This document shows, piece after piece, positions 16,473 through 53,016 of a stretch of DNA of 56,213 bases (position 1 is the first letter of the stretch; each line of letters opens with the position of its first letter). The translations under genes and the position numbers were made by a program. This DNA comes from Chloroflexota bacterium. Lineage in GTDB: Bacteria; Chloroflexota; Chloroflexia; QHBQ01; JADMIH01. Where the stretch lies: assembly GCA_015478675.1 (NCBI GenBank), contig JADMIH010000006.1:1-56213 (forward strand), written 5' to 3'. Under the pieces are notes generated by a model, which was given only the letters and a program-made list of their open reading frames with translations, was not told the DNA's origin and made no database searches.

Positions 16473-17066
16473 ATGTTGACGTTCTTTACATCGCCTTATT
16501 TTCTCCTATTTGCGCGTTTGTGCGTGGGTGGGGTCTTTCTAGCTTCGTCTTTTGGTAAGATGATTGATAAAGAAGGCACTGCCGCGAGCATGAGCCGCTA
16601 TACTTTCCTGCCTGTGGGTTCAGGAAAGTTTATAGCCAACGTCTTCCCTTTTATCGAGCTTATCGTCGGGCTGATGCTGGTGTTGGGACTCTTCACGCCC
16701 CTCGCTGCTATTGCGGCTCTTCTCCTTTTTATTCTCTTCACAGGCTTAATAGTGTACGATCTGGCATCAGGTAAGGATCAGTCGTGCCACTGCTTTGGCA
16801 GGCTCTCAGATGAAAAGGTGACGCCGTGGGCGGTGGCGCGCAATGTAGTGCTGATGGCCCTTTCGCTGCTAGTAGCTGCCAGCTTCGATGGCTGGCTCTC
16901 GGTAGATGGGGCGCTCGCCGCTTCGAGTAACAGCGAGTCCTTTCCGACTGTGGTTGATGGGATACCGATCGTCCTGCTGGCGATTGCCACTGTGTGCGTG
17001 GTTGTTTTGGGCGGCCAGGCTGTGAGCATGGTTCGTAACACCTTGCGCAGCATGGGTTTCCGCTAG
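16473..17066 (+). CDS. MauE/DoxX-family redox-associated membrane protein
   Basis: This 197-aa protein has four or five transmembrane segments (about 8-28, 55-72, 76-97, 115-133 and 160-185). The MauE signature is a cysteine pair, C105 and C107 in DQSCHCFG, next to the third helix. MauE-type proteins help form disulfides or pass electrons to partner proteins. DoxX relatives sit in quinone-linked complexes. It is first in an apparent three-gene membrane operon and is expressed from the promoter at 16388. The partner is not identifiable here. Confidence 0.82.
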   Translation: MLTFFTSPYFLLFARLCVGGVFLASSFGKMIDKEGTAASMSRYTFLPVGSGKFIANVFPFIELIVGLMLVLGLFTPLAAIAALLLFILFTGLIVYDLASGKDQSCHCFGRLSDEKVTPWAVARNVVLMALSLLVAASFDGWLSVDGALAASSNSESFPTVVDGIPIVLLAIATVCVVVLGGQAVSMVRNTLRSMGFR

Positions 17067-17089: not shown

Positions 17090-17308
17090 ATGGCAGAAGG
17101 TTATATAGGGCAGGCAGGTGAGACGCCTTCGCAACGCTACGGATCGTGGACGTTGGGCCTTGTCATGGCCGCCGTAGCTTCCGTCGCTGCCGGGTTACTA
17201 CTCGCTACCTTTACCGACGGCATAGCGCGTCCCTGGGCGGGGCTGGCCTTTGTGGTGGCGATGGGACTGGCAATAATAGTGGGGGTTTCTAAAACTACTT
17301 CCGCCTGA
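17090..17308 (+). CDS. Small membrane protein (72 aa)
   Basis: This 72-aa protein has two hydrophobic helices (about 22-43 and 49-68) after a polar N-terminus. I do not recognise a family. It lies 23 nt after the MauE/DoxX gene and 9 nt before the next membrane gene, so it is probably part of one membrane complex or operon. Confidence 0.6.
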   Translation: MAEGYIGQAGETPSQRYGSWTLGLVMAAVASVAAGLLLATFTDGIARPWAGLAFVVAMGLAIIVGVSKTTSA

Positions 17309-17317
17309 GGGCTGAAC

Positions 17318-17926
17318 ATGATCTTTGTGATCGTGCCCCTCGGGAAGGAGGCAAAGGAAGTTCGGGATTGGGTGGTGCGCGTAGCGATGTACACGGCTGC
17401 GTCAACCCTGGGCGCGGGCCTGCTCGCCATGCTGCTCGGTTTTATCGGGCACCAGTTTTTCCTCCTCTCCGGTATCACCCTACCCTGGGTGGCCGGTGTG
17501 CTGGGCATTATCTCTATCCTCTATGCGCTACGCGAGTTAAAGATACTGCATTTGCCTGTGCCCCAGGTTGGCTGGCAGGTGCCGAAGTCGTGGATGCGCC
17601 GCAGCCGCCTGGAGGGTAACATTCTTTATGGGCTGGTGCTTGGCGCAGGCGTGCTGACTTTTATTCCATACGCCAGCTTCTTGGTCTTGCTGGCCTGGGA
17701 GTTCGTAGCCGGAGCGGTGTCGCTGAAAGCAGCTGTTTTGCTGGGAATGTTGTATGGGGCGTCTCGTGGGCTGCCTGCGGCGCTTGGCGGCATTTCTGTG
17801 CTGCGTGGCGACTATCCCTTGCCTTTAAGTGAGTGGATCATCGCACGCATGGGCCTTTGGCACGCCATCAACGGCCTGGCGCTGCTACTGATAGGGGCTT
17901 ACTTACTAGGCTCGCTGGTGCTCTGA
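17318..17926 (+). CDS. Polytopic membrane protein, last gene of the MauE operon
   Basis: This 202-aa protein has about five or six hydrophobic segments and a conserved-looking loop (VPQVGWQVPKSWMRRS). The arrangement next to a MauE protein recalls the DsbD/CcdA transmembrane proteins that feed electrons to periplasmic thioredoxin folds. It has no cysteines, however, so it cannot be an ordinary CcdA. The function is unknown. A strong hairpin follows at 18050-18096. Confidence 0.6.
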   Translation: MIFVIVPLGKEAKEVRDWVVRVAMYTAASTLGAGLLAMLLGFIGHQFFLLSGITLPWVAGVLGIISILYALRELKILHLPVPQVGWQVPKSWMRRSRLEGNILYGLVLGAGVLTFIPYASFLVLLAWEFVAGAVSLKAAVLLGMLYGASRGLPAALGGISVLRGDYPLPLSEWIIARMGLWHAINGLALLLIGAYLLGSLVL

Positions 17927-43370: not shown

Positions 43371-43426
43371 AGAGGCGCGGGATGTGCAGAGTAAACAACA
43401 ATGCTCTCTGTACATCCCGCGCCTCT
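43371..43426. terminator. 15-bp hairpin downstream of selD
   Basis: AGAGGCGCGGGATGT (43371-43385) pairs perfectly with ACATCCCGCGCCTCT (43412-43426). It begins 15 bp past the selD stop. No T-tract follows, so its role is uncertain. Confidence 0.5.
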
Positions 43427-43441
43427 GCGGTGAAATTGAGA

Positions 43442-44533
43442 TTAGCTGACTACTACGCCCCGGCCTTCTTCTACTTCGCCAACTTCCCAGCAAGAGCCTC
43501 CTTCATCCTCGAAGATTGCGCGTACCCGGGCTATTTGCTCGGCGGGTATTGAGGCGAAGAGGCCGCCGGAGGTCTGAGGGTCAAACAAGAGGGTGAGGAG
43601 GTCGGAGCGAGTGTTGCCTTCCACATGTACTCTTACCACATTTTGGGGGCCGTTGGGGTGGGCGGCTTCGGCTTCTTCCACGAGAAGGTAGTCACGGTTG
43701 CGCCCTGTGCCGCCAGGCACTTGCTTGTCTTTGACATAGTCGAGAGCGCCATTTATCAACGGCACCTCAGAGGCGTCTATCCGCAGCCGCACTCCGCTCG
43801 CCTCAGCCACCTCCGAGGCATGCCCTAGCAGCCCGAAGCCTGTAATATCGGTGCAGGCGCGGATGCCCACCCCACGCAAGATGCGCGAAGCAGGGCCGTT
43901 TAGCTTCAGCATCCAATCTACAGCCTCTTGCAGGTGGGCAGGGTCGGCCCGGTCATTCTTGGCGGCTGTGGTGATAACGCCCGTACCGAGCGGCTTGGTG
44001 AGGATCATGCGGTCGCCGGGGCGCGCTCCGGCCTTTTGCATGATACGAGCCGGGTCTACAAGGCCTGTAACGCAAAGGCCGTACTTTGGCTCACGGTCGG
44101 TGACGGTGTGCCCTCCGCCAATTACCCCCCCCGCCTCATGCACTTTGTCAGCGCCGCCTTGCAAGATGGCGGTAAGTATCGCTTTATCAAGGTCGGTGGG
44201 GAAAGCCACGATGTTGAGGGCAAGGAGTACCTCGCCCCCCATCGCGTAGACATCGCTCATAGAGTTGGCGGCAGCTACTGCCCCGAAAGTGTAAGGGTCG
44301 TCTACCACGGGCGGGAAGAAGTCGAGGGTCTGCACAAGCGCCTGTGTGTCACTGAGGAGGTAAACAGCCGCGTCGTCGCCGGGGGCCAGACCTACTATTA
44401 AGTTGGGGTGCGTGTGAGACACTAAAGGGCGCAGCACCTGCGCCAGGTCGCCAGGACCCATCTTAGAGGCTCAACCGGCGCACGAAGCCAGGCTGGTTAG
44501 CCGCACGATAGTGCGCTTGTCCATATCTGACAT
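43442..44533 (-). CDS. selD: Selenophosphate synthetase SelD, a selenoprotein (Sec21 encoded by UGA)
   Basis: SelD makes selenophosphate from selenide and ATP, the selenium donor for selenocysteine and selenouridine and for some molybdenum enzymes. The plain ORF (from 44461) starts MGPGDLAQVL and lacks the catalytic residues. Reading upstream in frame gives MSDMDKRTIVRLTSLASCAG, then UGA at 44471-44473, then ASKMGPGDL. The UGA is at residue 21, exactly where SelD has its catalytic Cys/Sec, followed by the catalytic Lys24. GGAGGTGAT, a nine-base anti-16S match, lies 7 nt before the ATG at 44533. The rest shows GDDAAVYL, GGHTVTDREPKYGL and FDPQTSGGLF, all SelD motifs. The product has 363 residues including Sec. 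Confidence 0.95.
44428..44473 (-). promoter_or_regulatory. UGA-Sec codon with bacterial SECIS-like hairpin
   Basis: The UGA is at 44471-44473. GGCGCA-GGUGC-UGCGCC (44428-44444) forms a 6-bp stem with a GG-starting loop about 32 nt after the UGA, within the spacing known for bacterial SECIS elements. A smaller hairpin, GGGUC-CUGGC-GACCU, lies nearer the UGA. Confidence 0.7.
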
Positions 44534-44563
44534 GGCTGCTATCACCTCCTTTCCAGGGCTTCA

Positions 44564-44634
44564 TAGTGTGTACTGTGTAAGGGATTATAGACACAGCGTC
44601 TGTGCCCTCATCTTACACAGTACTCAGCACACTA
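44564..44634. repeat. Intergenic palindromic repeat (family B, copy 4)
   Basis: TAGTGTG...TACTGTGTAA pairs with TTACACAGTA...CACACTA. The core GGGATTATAGACACAGCGTC resembles the copy between the FHA genes. It lies between htrA and selD. Confidence 0.6.
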
Positions 44635-46392: not shown

Positions 46393-47838
46393 TCATAATT
46401 CCCAGCCGAACCACCCCGCAGGGTCGGTGGCGGTCTGTGAAGGGCGGTATTCGCCGCTCAGGGGGTTCTGGGTGTAGTCGCCTTGCCATTTGCCGTTGTG
46501 GATGTTCCACAGGGCGTCTGCCACCGCGTCTACGTCGGCTGTGCTGTTGTAGAAGCCAAACGAGATGCGTACAGCGCCGGGCATGCCGCGCCTATCGCCG
46601 CAGCTTACCTCCTCACGCAATTCATGTATGCGATCAGTGGAGAGGCCAAAGAGACGCATGAGGTAGGGGTGGGCGCAAAAGCCGCCTGTGCGCGTGCCTA
46701 TCGCATATTCGTGGCTGAGGATAGCTGCGGTTTGCTGATGGTCGCTGTTCGCCAGGTTGAACGAGATAACGCCCAGCCTGTCTTGCGGCAGAGCAGAGTC
46801 GCGTGGGCCATATATTTGCAAGCCTGGAATGGCGTTCAGCTTTTCGAGGGCATACGAAGTGAGCTTGTGTTCGTGCTCAACTATCTCATCCCAGCCGAGG
46901 TCGTCCTGGAGAAATCGCGCCGCCGCTGCCATAGCGATAGCGCCCACAACGTTGGGGCTGCCCGCTTCTTCGCTGTCCGGCGGACCACTCCACATCTCCT
47001 CTTCTTCGGAAACGAACAGCACCGTCCCCCCACCTACAAGGTCGGGCATCCGGTTCTTGAAAGCCTCATGCGGGCCGATCAGCGCGCCGCAGCCCAGGGG
47101 GGCGTACATCTTGTGCGCCGAGAAAGCAACAAAGTCTATCGAGTCCGGATCGCCGACGCGCCCCACGCAGACCGGCCTGTGTGGGGCTAGCTGTGCCGCA
47201 TCCACCAGCAGCATAGCTCCCGCTTCGTGTACCAGGCGAGCTATGGGGTGTATATCGGGGATAACCCCCGTCACGTTCGAGCCGCCGGAGATCGCTACCA
47301 GCCTTACGTGTCCCTTGTTGGCCTCGAGCCGCTCTTTCAGATTCGGCAACACAGGTGCGCCGAAGTCGTCCACCGATACGCTTTCGACGTGGGCGCAGCG
47401 CCTTCGCCAGGCAAGAATGTTCGAGTGGTGCTCCATAAGGGTGGTGAGCACAACATCGTCTTCGCCCAGGGGTATGAGGCTGGCACACCTGTTTATAGCT
47501 TCTGTGGCGTTGCGCACGAAGACCACATGCCGCTCGCTCAGATCTGCGCCCATAAAGTGGGCAACGCGCTCCCGCGCCTGCTCATAAGCAAGTGAGGAGA
47601 CTTGCGACTTGAAGCCGCTGCCGCGATGCACAGCGGCGTACCATTCGAGGAAGCTATCAACCTTTGCTTTTACAGGACGCGCAATAGGAGTGGAAGCTGC
47701 GTTATCGAGGTTTATATATGGCCGGAGGGTGCCGTCGAGGACGGGAACGAGGGTGTGACCGCCTACTATGAGGTCCGACAGGTCGCCGCCGTTGGATTGC
47801 CGCTCTGTTTTTGTACAGTCAATCTCCTCAGCTTTCAT
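46393..47838 (-). CDS. Cysteine desulfurase-like PLP enzyme near selD
   Basis: This class V aminotransferase-fold enzyme of 481 aa starts at ATG 47838 with GGGAGGAACCTCT upstream. The PLP lysine is K243 in FSAHKMYAPLG. A cysteine sits at the desulfurase position, C388 in TRTGGFCAHPYLMRL, as in SufS/CsdA enzymes that release sulfur or selenium from (seleno)cysteine. MEHHSNILAW and TGVIPDIHPIARLVHEAG are family motifs. It has extra N- and C-terminal segments. Its closeness to selD makes delivery of selenium possible (inference). No suf genes are present. Confidence 0.85.
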   Translation of the reverse strand: MKAEEIDCTKTERQSNGGDLSDLIVGGHTLVPVLDGTLRPYINLDNAASTPIARPVKAKVDSFLEWYAAVHRGSGFKSQVSSLAYEQARERVAHFMGADLSERHVVFVRNATEAINRCASLIPLGEDDVVLTTLMEHHSNILAWRRRCAHVESVSVDDFGAPVLPNLKERLEANKGHVRLVAISGGSNVTGVIPDIHPIARLVHEAGAMLLVDAAQLAPHRPVCVGRVGDPDSIDFVAFSAHKMYAPLGCGALIGPHEAFKNRMPDLVGGGTVLFVSEEEEMWSGPPDSEEAGSPNVVGAIAMAAAARFLQDDLGWDEIVEHEHKLTSYALEKLNAIPGLQIYGPRDSALPQDRLGVISFNLANSDHQQTAAILSHEYAIGTRTGGFCAHPYLMRLFGLSTDRIHELREEVSCGDRRGMPGAVRISFGFYNSTADVDAVADALWNIHNGKWQGDYTQNPLSGEYRPSQTATDPAGWFGWEL

Positions 47839-48052
47839 AGAGGTTCCTCCCTTGCGCTCATCTTTGAGCGCGATAAGCACGGGCATGCCCATAGAGTCAG
47901 AGATAATATACCCCTCATATAAAGCCTTTGCAAGGCGAGTATGCGGCGTAAGTGGTCAACTCGGAGCGTGGCTACCTGCTAAACCACTGACCGCTGCTAT
48001 GATTGGCGGCCAGTGTAAGTAGCTCTCCACAAACTGCGTGGTCAGTCTCTTG

Positions 48053-51262: not shown

Positions 51263-51898
51263 CTATTTATTTAGTTTACCTGACAAATAGCCGCCGCGCA
51301 AGAGCGCCCTGTAGTCTTCCGGTGTGTCAACATCGCGTGGGCGTTCGTCCTCTGTAAAGGGTACTCGGCAGACCATCTGGGGGTGGGTTGTTACCAGCTT
51401 GCTGACGCCTGTATCGCCCGTGAGGGCCAGCAGTTCAGGAAAGGCCTCGCGAGCGCATAGAGTTGGCGGGCCTGGCTCGTCGCCGTAGAAAGGAATGGTG
51501 ATGGGCATTCGCCTCTTGCCGTAGGCAAGCACCAATCTCTCGACGATTCGCGGCGCAACAGCAGGCTCATCGCCGAGCATGATCATCGCGGCTTCAATCT
51601 CACCCATAAGAGCCTCTATGCCCACCGCCAGCGACGTTGATATTCCGTCCATATACAGGGCGTTGATCACGAATCTGGCCTGTAAGCCTCTGATCGCCTC
51701 ATACACATCGGGTAAATCGGGGCGCACGACTACCACCAGATCGGCAGGCTTTAGAGCCTCTGCATTGCGGACAGTGTGCCAGATAACCGGCCTGCCGTCG
51801 TGCAGCGGCAGCAGCAGCTTTGGCTCAGCGCCCATCCTATGACCACGCCCAGCAGCCAGGATGAGCACAGCTATATGTTGTTCCGCCAGCTTTGCCAT
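51263..51898 (-). CDS. mocA: Molybdenum cofactor cytidylyltransferase-like protein (MocA family)
   Basis: This nucleotidyltransferase of about 211 aa has the signature AVLILAAGRGHRMGAEPKLLLPL at its start, then LVVVVRPDLPDVYEAI, ALYMDGISTSLAVGIEAL, IMLGDEPAV and PRDVDTPEDYRALL. MocA adds CMP to molybdopterin for xanthine-dehydrogenase-type enzymes, and the family also includes selenium-dependent hydroxylase maturation proteins. The ATG at 51898 replaces longer, unsupported starts. It is divergent from the xdhC pair, whose start is 31 bp away. Confidence 0.85.
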   Translation of the reverse strand: MAKLAEQHIAVLILAAGRGHRMGAEPKLLLPLHDGRPVIWHTVRNAEALKPADLVVVVRPDLPDVYEAIRGLQARFVINALYMDGISTSLAVGIEALMGEIEAAMIMLGDEPAVAPRIVERLVLAYGKRRMPITIPFYGDEPGPPTLCAREAFPELLALTGDTGVSKLVTTHPQMVCRVPFTEDERPRDVDTPEDYRALLRGGYLSGKLNK

Positions 51899-51917
51899 GT
51901 GATCTATAGCCTTCGTG

Positions 51918-51923
51918 TATAAT
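51918..51923 (+). promoter_or_regulatory. TATAAT -10 element for xdhC, leaderless layout
   Basis: TATAAT ends 6 bp before the GTG at 51930, so the mRNA should begin at or next to the start codon. The in-frame GTG at 51915 overlaps the -10 and cannot be used. Confidence 0.5.
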
Positions 51924-51929
51924 CTTGAT

Positions 51930-52262
51930 GTGGAGACAGATACATTCCTGAGCGATATTGTACCAGCAATTGAGCGTTGGCGGGCGGAAGGGCAGCGCAT
52001 AGCGATGGCAACTGTGGTGCGTGTAGAAGGCACAGCCCCACGACGCGAGGGTGCGCGGCTGGTGGTCTCTTCTAAAGGTGAGATTGCAGGCTCGGTGAGC
52101 GGAGGTTGCGTCGAGGGCGCGGTCATTGTCGAGGCGCTAGAGGCGCTGCAAAAGAGTGAACCGAAGATAGTGCGCTATGGCATTACGCCCGATATGATCA
52201 CAGACGTTGGTCTGTCATGCGGCGGCACGATCTACGTTTTTATCGAAGCTCTGGATGCCTAG
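51930..52262 (+). CDS. XdhC/CoxI family protein, N-terminal-domain half
   Basis: This protein of 110 residues matches the XdhC_CoxI N-terminal domain: FLSDIVPAIERWRAEG, MATVVRVEGTAPRREGARLVVS, IAGSVSGGCVEGAV and the cysteine motif VGLSCGGTIYVFIE. XdhC binds molybdenum cofactor, aids its sulfuration and inserts it into xanthine-dehydrogenase-type enzymes. The usual C-terminal Rossmann part is encoded by the next gene. Start is GTG 51930. The TAG overlaps the next ATG (ATGCCTAG), so the two should be translationally coupled. Confidence 0.88.
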   Translation: METDTFLSDIVPAIERWRAEGQRIAMATVVRVEGTAPRREGARLVVSSKGEIAGSVSGGCVEGAVIVEALEALQKSEPKIVRYGITPDMITDVGLSCGGTIYVFIEALDA

Positions 52263-53016
52263 CTTGACGGCGATTTCTCCCTACTTAGAGCTTGCCGCTT
52301 TGCTCCGCAGAGGCTGTCCTGCCTCTCTTGCCACAGTGGTAAGCTCCAGCGACCCTCACCTCCTACCCGGCACTGCCCTTCTCTTTACCGGCGAAGATAG
52401 CTCACTATCTATTCACCCTGAGCTGGATGCTCTACTGGCAGCCGATACTCAACGTCTGTTGGCTGAGGAACGCTCTGAAGTGCTGGCTTACCATACCCCC
52501 TCAGGCGATGTGGAGATATTTGTCGAGAGCTTTCTCCCCCCACAGCAGCTTATCATCGTTGGAGCCGTACATGTAGCGATAGCCCTCTCCAAGATAGCTA
52601 AACTCCTGGGCTACAAAGTGACCCTGGTTGACCCACGCGGCGTATTCGCCACCGCTGAGCGCTTCCCGGAAGCTGACCGTATTATCGTTGACTGGCCTGA
52701 AGATGCTTTTCAGCAGATTGAAATAAACATGAGCACCTCAATCGCGGTTCTCACCCACGACCCAAAGCTGGATTTGCCCGCGCTCTTGCTGGCGCTCAAC
52801 TCCGAAGCCCGGTACGTAGGCATGATTGGCAGCCGCTCCACTGCTGCCCAACGCAAAGCTGGCCTCGCCGCAATGGGCGCTACAAAGGCGCAGTTGAGCC
52901 GCATACACTCGCCTGTCGGCCTCAACATAGGCGCCCGCACTCCCGCAGAAATAGCCCTGTCGGCCATGGCCGAGATCGTGGCGGTGCGTAGGCGCGGGGC
53001 AAGCAGTCCTAGCTAA
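52255..53016 (+). CDS. XdhC/CoxI family protein with C-terminal Rossmann domain
   Basis: This 253-aa partner of the preceding protein has an N-terminal part (about 1-95) related to XdhC_CoxI (LLRRGCPASLATVVSSSD, GDVEIFVESF). A Rossmann-type C-terminal domain (about 97-245) follows, with QLIIVGAVHVAIALSKIAKLLGYKVTLVD, VDWPEDAF, YVGMIGSRSTAAQRK and GLNIGARTPAEIALSAMAEIV. Together the two genes make a split XdhC. The ATG at 52255 overlaps the stop of the upstream gene. No molybdenum hydroxylase subunits are in the window. Confidence 0.9.
   Translation: MPSLTAISPYLELAALLRRGCPASLATVVSSSDPHLLPGTALLFTGEDSSLSIHPELDALLAADTQRLLAEERSEVLAYHTPSGDVEIFVESFLPPQQLIIVGAVHVAIALSKIAKLLGYKVTLVDPRGVFATAERFPEADRIIVDWPEDAFQQIEINMSTSIAVLTHDPKLDLPALLLALNSEARYVGMIGSRSTAAQRKAGLAAMGATKAQLSRIHSPVGLNIGARTPAEIALSAMAEIVAVRRRGASSPS

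What the first reader, a model, noticed from the sequence alone, without database searches (positions are those of the whole stretch)
43442..44533. selD is a selenoprotein gene hidden by an in-frame UGA
A plain ORF call starts at 44461 and loses the catalytic site. In-frame upstream sequence restores the conserved SelD N-terminus, with UGA at residue 21 in CAG-U-ASK, the exact catalytic Cys/Sec position. A nine-base Shine-Dalgarno match precedes the new ATG at 44533. A hairpin with a GG-starting loop about 32 nt after the UGA fits bacterial SECIS rules. The genome should therefore contain selA, selB, selC and possibly other selenoproteins missed by standard annotation.
Basis: partly seen in the sequence, partly recalled or inferred. 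Interest (0 to 1): 0.8.

Follow-up and report, generated by a model that had tools for sequence, protein, structure and literature searches.

The report
Two hidden selenoprotein genes, selD included

Summary
Window 43442-44533 (-) encodes full SelD only if the in-frame TGA at 44471-44473, at the catalytic Cys/Sec site, is read through. In 190 genes examined (window included) that codon is TGA in 166 and TGC/TGT in 24, 12 of the latter fetched on purpose as controls. A bacterial SECIS rule is met by 110 of 163 unique TGA genes, against 28.8 after synonymous shuffling and 3 of 24 Cys genes. SelA, SelB and tRNA-Sec are in most related Chloroflexota genomes tested; the window's own genome is not held. 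Sec-SelD is known, so this part is a new member of a known kind.

The corollary, other missed selenoproteins, holds inside the window. At 17090-17926 (+), beside a MauE gene, a CcdA-like membrane protein has a TGA where CcdA has its catalytic Cys. In 15 Chloroflexota genomes with a TGA in this gene, it lies at that column (two placed by eye), and all 15 have SelB. The family is absent from a 119-family inventory of 2026. Its role in disulfide chemistry is inferred.

The parts
43442..44533 (-). selD, selenophosphate synthetase, 363 aa with Sec21
   Evidence: TIGR00476 361.9 bits, cut-off 125; translation
44471..44473 (-). in-frame TGA read as Sec (catalytic site)
   Evidence: TGA in 166 of 190 genes, TGC/TGT in 24
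44428..44444 (-). distal hairpin, probable SECIS of selD (loop GGUGC or GUG)
   Evidence: Top-ranked hairpin position over 163 TGA genes; rule test; covariation
44445..44459 (-). proximal hairpin between UGA and SECIS; does not itself meet the SECIS loop rule in the window
44541..44551 (-). Shine-Dalgarno match AAGGAGGTGAT
   Evidence: sequence
17090..17926 (+). second selenoprotein gene: CcdA/DsbD-like membrane protein, 278 aa with Sec73
17306..17308 (+). in-frame TGA at the column of the first CcdA cysteine
   Evidence: TGA at this column in 15 other genomes; Cys in 12 of 12 full-length CcdA-like proteins aligned
17338..17351 (+). weak SECIS-like hairpin CCTC-GGGAAG-GAGG, 33 nt after the UGA
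   Evidence: 4 bp, -4.8 kcal/mol; family-level support only
17317..17335 (+). proximal hairpin CATGATC/GATCGTG
   Evidence: 7 bp; L193 has CATGATT/AATCGTG, one compensated pair
16473..17066 (+). MauE/DoxX membrane protein directly upstream of the second selenoprotein gene
   Evidence: PF07291 102.8 bits, cut-off 27

Best explanation
43442-44533 is a selD whose in-frame UGA is decoded as selenocysteine by SelB and tRNA-Sec, guided by a SECIS hairpin whose loop starts 32-33 nt downstream. The Sec stands at the catalytic cysteine position (E. coli Cys17, recalled) used to make selenophosphate, so the enzyme needs its own product in order to be made. The window also encodes a second selenoprotein, a CcdA-like membrane protein whose Sec replaces the first catalytic cysteine of that family and which probably carries electrons across the membrane in thiol/disulfide chemistry. 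Shown: conserved UGA, Sec/Cys interchange, SECIS signal over both families, machinery in relatives. Inferred: Sec insertion in this organism, enzyme activity, and the role of the CcdA-like protein.
For: selD: TIGR00476 match; TGA in 166 of 190 genes, Cys codons in the other 24; SECIS rule met by 110 of 163 unique TGA genes against 28.8 (synonymous null), 51.6 (within-gene codon permutation) and 3 of 24 Cys genes; pairing of the six columns 0.758 against a shuffle maximum of 0.648; SelB in 28, SelA in 29 and clear tRNA-Sec in 27 of 30 relatives with TGA-SelD. TGA is also used as an ordinary stop: 11 of 43 window ORFs of 150 aa or more end in TGA. CcdA-like gene: homology on both sides of the TGA; TGA at the same column in 15 genomes; Cys in 12 of 12 CcdA-like homologues aligned; SelB in 15 of 15; SECIS-like hairpin in 13 of 15 sequences against a null mean of 4.1 and maximum of 9.
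Against: The window's own genome is not held. The selD hairpin of this sequence is within the range of shuffles, and 53 of 163 TGA genes show no hairpin by my strict rule. Machinery does not discriminate within the phylum: SelB is also in 12 of 13 genomes whose SelD has no stop; G334 has a TGA-SelD but no SelA or SelB match. For the CcdA-like gene, the window protein matches no Pfam family, its own hairpin has 4 bp and misses the -7.5 kcal/mol rule, and the structural match to CcdA is weak.
Confidence: 0.93

Rival explanations
1. The real selD starts at ATG 44461 (339 aa); the TGA is a true stop or a sequencing error, and the similarity upstream is a relic.
For: Standard calling gives this ORF, and the close database relatives are called the same way.
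Against: TGA is at the same column in 166 of 190 genes and a Cys codon in the other 24; no other codon was seen. The short form lacks the catalytic motif. SECIS signal is above null.
Confidence: 0.03
2. UGA is read as a standard amino acid, either genome-wide or by leaky read-through, and not as Sec.
For: No direct test of Sec insertion exists for this organism.
Against: 11 of 43 window ORFs of 150 aa or more end in TGA; the alternative codons are only Cys codons; relatives have SelA, SelB and tRNA-Sec.
Confidence: 0.03
3. For 17090-17926: two separate genes, a 72-aa membrane peptide ending at the TGA and a 202-aa protein starting at ATG 17318.
For: The ORF caller starts at 17318. 10 of the 12 database relatives that I aligned start at the equivalent Met. 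The window's SECIS-like hairpin is weak.
Against: Homology crosses the TGA in L191-L195; the codon is TGA at that column in 15 genomes and Cys in full-length CcdA-like proteins; SelB in 15 of 15.
Confidence: 0.08

Closest known systems
SelD / SPS, Sec-containing form (TIGR00476; UxxK in Table 1 of PMC13188914)
   Same: Full-length match, Sec at the catalytic position, UASK motif, SECIS-like hairpin downstream
   Different: Nothing in kind. The SECIS sits at 32-33 nt here and at 16-21 nt in other members
CcdA / DsbD_TM membrane electron carriers (PF02683, PF13386)
   Same: Sec aligns with the first conserved Cys; L191, a relative, matches DsbD_2 over cut-off (32.6 against 24.9 bits)
   Different: Sec in place of Cys; second conserved Cys is Ile in the window and L192, kept in L191; the window protein itself matches no Pfam family
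TsoB rhodanese/DsbD fusion-like selenoprotein (NF045694)
   Same: Also a selenoprotein with a DsbD-like part; the Cys homologue P0219 matches its model weakly (20.7 bits, cut-off 805)
   Different: TsoB is listed with two Sec in a UxxxxU motif and a rhodanese part; the window protein and four relatives tested do not match its model
E. coli fdhF SECIS (sequence recalled)
   Same: Apical GCA-GGU..-UGC of the selD hairpin resembles the fdhF apical stem-loop
   Different: About 14 nt further from the UGA, with another hairpin in between

Membership tests
SelD (TIGR00476) | Full-length match to the curated selD model | tested here: met
   361.9 bits, cut-off 125, residues 11-332
SelD (TIGR00476) | Cys or Sec at the catalytic position with Lys three residues on (UxxK) | tested here: met
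   U21-A-S-K; Cys/Sec only in 190 of 190 genes with a codon
SelD (TIGR00476) | Selenophosphate synthesis | not testable with these tools
   needs an assay
Bacterial Sec decoding | SECIS: stem-loop, G in first two loop positions, 16-37 nt from UGA, -7.5 kcal/mol or better | tested here: met
   selD hairpin: loop GGUGC at 32 nt, -9.4 kcal/mol, or GUG at 33 nt, -11.3
Bacterial Sec decoding | selA, selB and tRNA-Sec in the same genome | not testable with these tools
   genome not held; relatives have them
CcdA/DsbD_TM | Curated domain match | tested here: not met
   window protein: no Pfam family; relative L191 matches DsbD_2. So it is called CcdA-like, not CcdA
CcdA/DsbD_TM | First conserved Cys, or Sec in its place | tested here: met
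CcdA/DsbD_TM | Second conserved Cys | tested here: not met
   Ile in the window and L192, Cys in L191
CcdA/DsbD_TM | Fold of solved CcdA | tested here: inconclusive
   Model pLDDT 79; 5vkv CcdA probability 0.84, highest of the rows shown, but E 0.21 and TM 0.32/0.38; not among the 50 VIA-align rows
Bacterial Sec decoding (CcdA-like gene) | SECIS by the same rule | tested here: inconclusive
   window hairpin only 4 bp and -4.8 kcal/mol; family signal above null

The most novel reading that the evidence does not exclude
The window's second gene (17090-17926) represents an undescribed selenoprotein family: a Sec-containing, CcdA-like membrane electron carrier of Chloroflexota, often encoded near a MauE protein, a redoxin and a Cys-rich MauA-like exported protein. 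In the window and in L192 the second CcdA cysteine is lost, so a lone Sec would form a mixed selenenyl-sulfide with a partner protein in place of the usual Cys pair.
Probability: 0.8. Interest if true: 0.62.

Novelty: new variant of a known kind. Interest (0 to 1): 0.5.

Why it matters
selD by itself is a new member of a known kind, though the database copies of this clade that I looked at are called without their catalytic site. The second gene matters more and is why the label is 'new variant': it suggests that Sec is used in a transmembrane electron carrier of the CcdA type whose relatives are filed as hypothetical proteins that start just after the UGA. It would extend a selenoproteome described as mostly thioredoxin-like (PMC13188914) to a membrane redox carrier, and it points to a MauE/redoxin/Cys-rich-protein module that can be tested.

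Tried and rejected

Literature. Seen as passages: PMC4561486, PMC1794560, PMC13188914 (section 7 parts 1 and 2 of 3 with its Table 1), PMC5322559, PMC9312934. Searched for terms with no hit: PMC12013277, PMC5029168. Not held: PMC12013261, the paper cited for TsoB, so it was not read. That the CcdA-like family is undescribed rests on paper searches, on that Table 1, and on NCBIfam scans of the window protein and of L191-L195. The library lacks most subscription papers.

Full report
WHAT WAS CLAIMED.

THE OBSERVATION. Sequence and coordinates are right. The ordinary ORF is 43442-44461, 339 aa. From ATG 44533 with TGA read as Sec the protein has 363 aa, with Sec21 in CAG-U-ASK. An 11-nt Shine-Dalgarno match ends 7 nt before the ATG. 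The protein matches TIGR00476 selD with 361.9 bits against a cut-off of 125. The names of its relatives place the window in Chloroflexota; this is inferred.

RELATIVES OF selD. None of the 120 listed database proteins (7997 found) has the catalytic motif in its first 45 residues; most begin at the Met after the TGA. In the rows listed, 13 have no stop inside and the others have one TGA. Of 191 genes, window included, 190 gave a codon at residue 21: TGA 166, TGC 18, TGT 6 (L013 gave none). This is no random sample: 12 stop-free genes were fetched as controls, and some genomes occur twice. On a quick tree of 92 SelD proteins Sec and Cys change at least 5 times.

SECIS OF selD. Taken alone the hairpin is nothing special (109, 16 and 116 of 200 shuffles fold as well, for 55, 70 and 43 nt). 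Over 163 unique TGA genes, a scan of all six-pair hairpin positions puts the window's hairpin (positions 30-46 counted from the U) first: all six pairs form in 51.5% of TGA genes and in none of 24 Cys genes. Under the published rule (PMC13188914, passage; I asked for 5 or more contiguous pairs) 110 of 163 TGA genes qualify. Synonymous shuffling gives a mean of 28.8 (20 shuffles), permuting codons within each gene 51.6, and 3 of 24 Cys genes qualify. Pairing of the six columns is 0.758 against a shuffle maximum of 0.648, and double-changed paired cells number 95 against a maximum of 55. Some changes alter the protein while keeping the stem: Ala/Arg (GCG/CGC) in the window, Glu/Leu (GAG/CTC) in L108, Thr/Ser (ACT/AGT) in L025. 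53 of 163 TGA genes show no hairpin by this rule.

TWO SECIS POSITIONS. The qualifying hairpin lies near 16-21 nt (H1, 50 genes) or 32-35 nt (H2, 76 genes); 16 genes have both. Among 50 tree rows with only one of the two, at least 13 changes are needed, so the SECIS may have moved repeatedly within one gene family. The window uses H2; its H1 loop does not meet the rule. The labels depend on a threshold and 36 of 89 inner branches of the tree are weak, so this is a lead.

MACHINERY. No genome is held for the window. Of 30 relatives with TGA-SelD, SelB is over cut-off in 28 (not G334, G313), SelA in 29 (not G334), and tRNA-Sec over 60 bits in 27 (not G306, G313, G098). The tRNA-Sec cut-off itself is leaky (5 of 14 control genomes pass), so I count only the clear group. 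Of 13 genomes whose SelD has no stop, SelB is in 12 and SelA and clear tRNA-Sec in 13, so machinery does not discriminate within the phylum. In a first set SelB was over cut-off in 8 of 9 genomes with TGA-SelD (not G002) and in 1 of 5 with Cys-SelD.

KNOWN OR NEW. [quoted passage not shown] A 2006 survey already lists selenoproteins in Chloroflexi (PMC1794560, passage). So selD here is a new member of a known kind.

THE SECOND GENE. Looking for further in-frame TGA in gaps between ORFs, I read the stretch before the ORF at 17318. From ATG 17090 one frame runs to 17926 with a single TGA at 17306-17308. A protein search found 89 relatives, mostly 200-206 aa; 10 of the 12 that I aligned start at the equivalent Met, one later, and one, P0209, is full length, with a DsbD_TM domain and Cys at the site. 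In DNA, homology crosses the TGA in five genomes, each with TGA at the same column (L191-L192; L193-L195). A profile search of 400 Chloroflexota genomes gave 26 with a match: 12 have one TGA inside (G036 also a TAG) and 14 no stop. With the three of the class search (158 genomes) this makes 15 genomes with a TGA. In all 15 it falls on the column of the first CcdA cysteine; L203 and L210 were placed by eye because the automatic alignment took another segment. Of the 14 matches without a stop, 11 have Cys there, L206 and L211 do not reach the column, and L216 aligns a Gly next to a Cys. Of 14 full-length CcdA-like proteins found with P0209, the 12 that I aligned all have Cys there. SelB is over cut-off in 15 of 15 of these genomes.

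SECIS OF THE SECOND GENE. Of 15 sequences (window plus 14; L210 not included) 13 have a G-loop hairpin of -4.5 kcal/mol or better, against a null mean of 4.1 and a maximum of 9 in 300 shuffles; three of the 13 (L203-L205) are near-copies. Only 5 reach -7.5. The window's own hairpin has 4 bp (-4.8), and 23% of its own shuffles do as well; L193 and L201 have none. Another hairpin sits between the UGA and the SECIS in several, including the window and L193, which differ by one compensated pair.

NEIGHBOURS AND ROLE. In the window the gene follows a MauE protein. Of the neighbours tested, MauE is found upstream in L192, L202 and L210; a redoxin or thioredoxin in L193, L194 and L195; Me-amine-dh_L over cut-off in L192 and L194 and under it in L195. 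Cys-rich exported-looking proteins of 127-155 aa precede the gene in L193, L200, L202, L207, L208, L209 and L210 by eye, but Pfam gives them no meaningful family. L201, L203, L204 and L205 show no such Cys-rich gene, nor does the window. MauD and MauE serve disulfide formation in methylamine dehydrogenase (recalled). The most likely role is electron transfer for disulfide handling of such exported proteins. This is inference.

STRUCTURE. The AlphaFold model (mean pLDDT 79) is a multi-helix protein. Solved CcdA (5vkv) has the highest Foldseek probability of the rows shown (0.84) but E 0.21, so the fold is suggestive only.

VERDICT. The selD claim is supported at high confidence and is ordinary in kind. 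Its corollary led to a probable new selenoprotein family, which carries most of the interest.

Noticed in passing
17090-17926 (+), TGA at 17306-17308: Second in-frame-TGA gene, a CcdA-like membrane protein beside MauE; probably an undescribed selenoprotein family.
   Followed up: yes
selD relatives L001-L190: The SECIS hairpin lies at about 16-21 nt in some selD genes and 32-35 nt in others, with at least 13 changes on a tree of 50 rows: apparent repeated relocation within one gene family.
   Followed up: partly
44567-44626: 15-nt inverted repeat (93%, 30 nt apart) between the HtrA-like gene and selD, with TATAAT in the spacer on the minus strand; possibly an operator or promoter of selD.
   Followed up: no
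43371-43426: 21-nt inverted repeat (95%) just downstream of selD, perhaps a terminator without a clear T run.
   Followed up: no
51263-53016: A molybdenum cofactor cytidylyltransferase-like gene (132 bits, cut-off 186) beside an XdhC-like gene; such proteins serve molybdenum hydroxylases, some of which use selenium (last point recalled).
   Followed up: no
46393-47892 (-): SufS-like cysteine desulfurase (290.9 bits, cut-off 475) upstream of selD on the same strand, a possible selenium donor.
   Followed up: no
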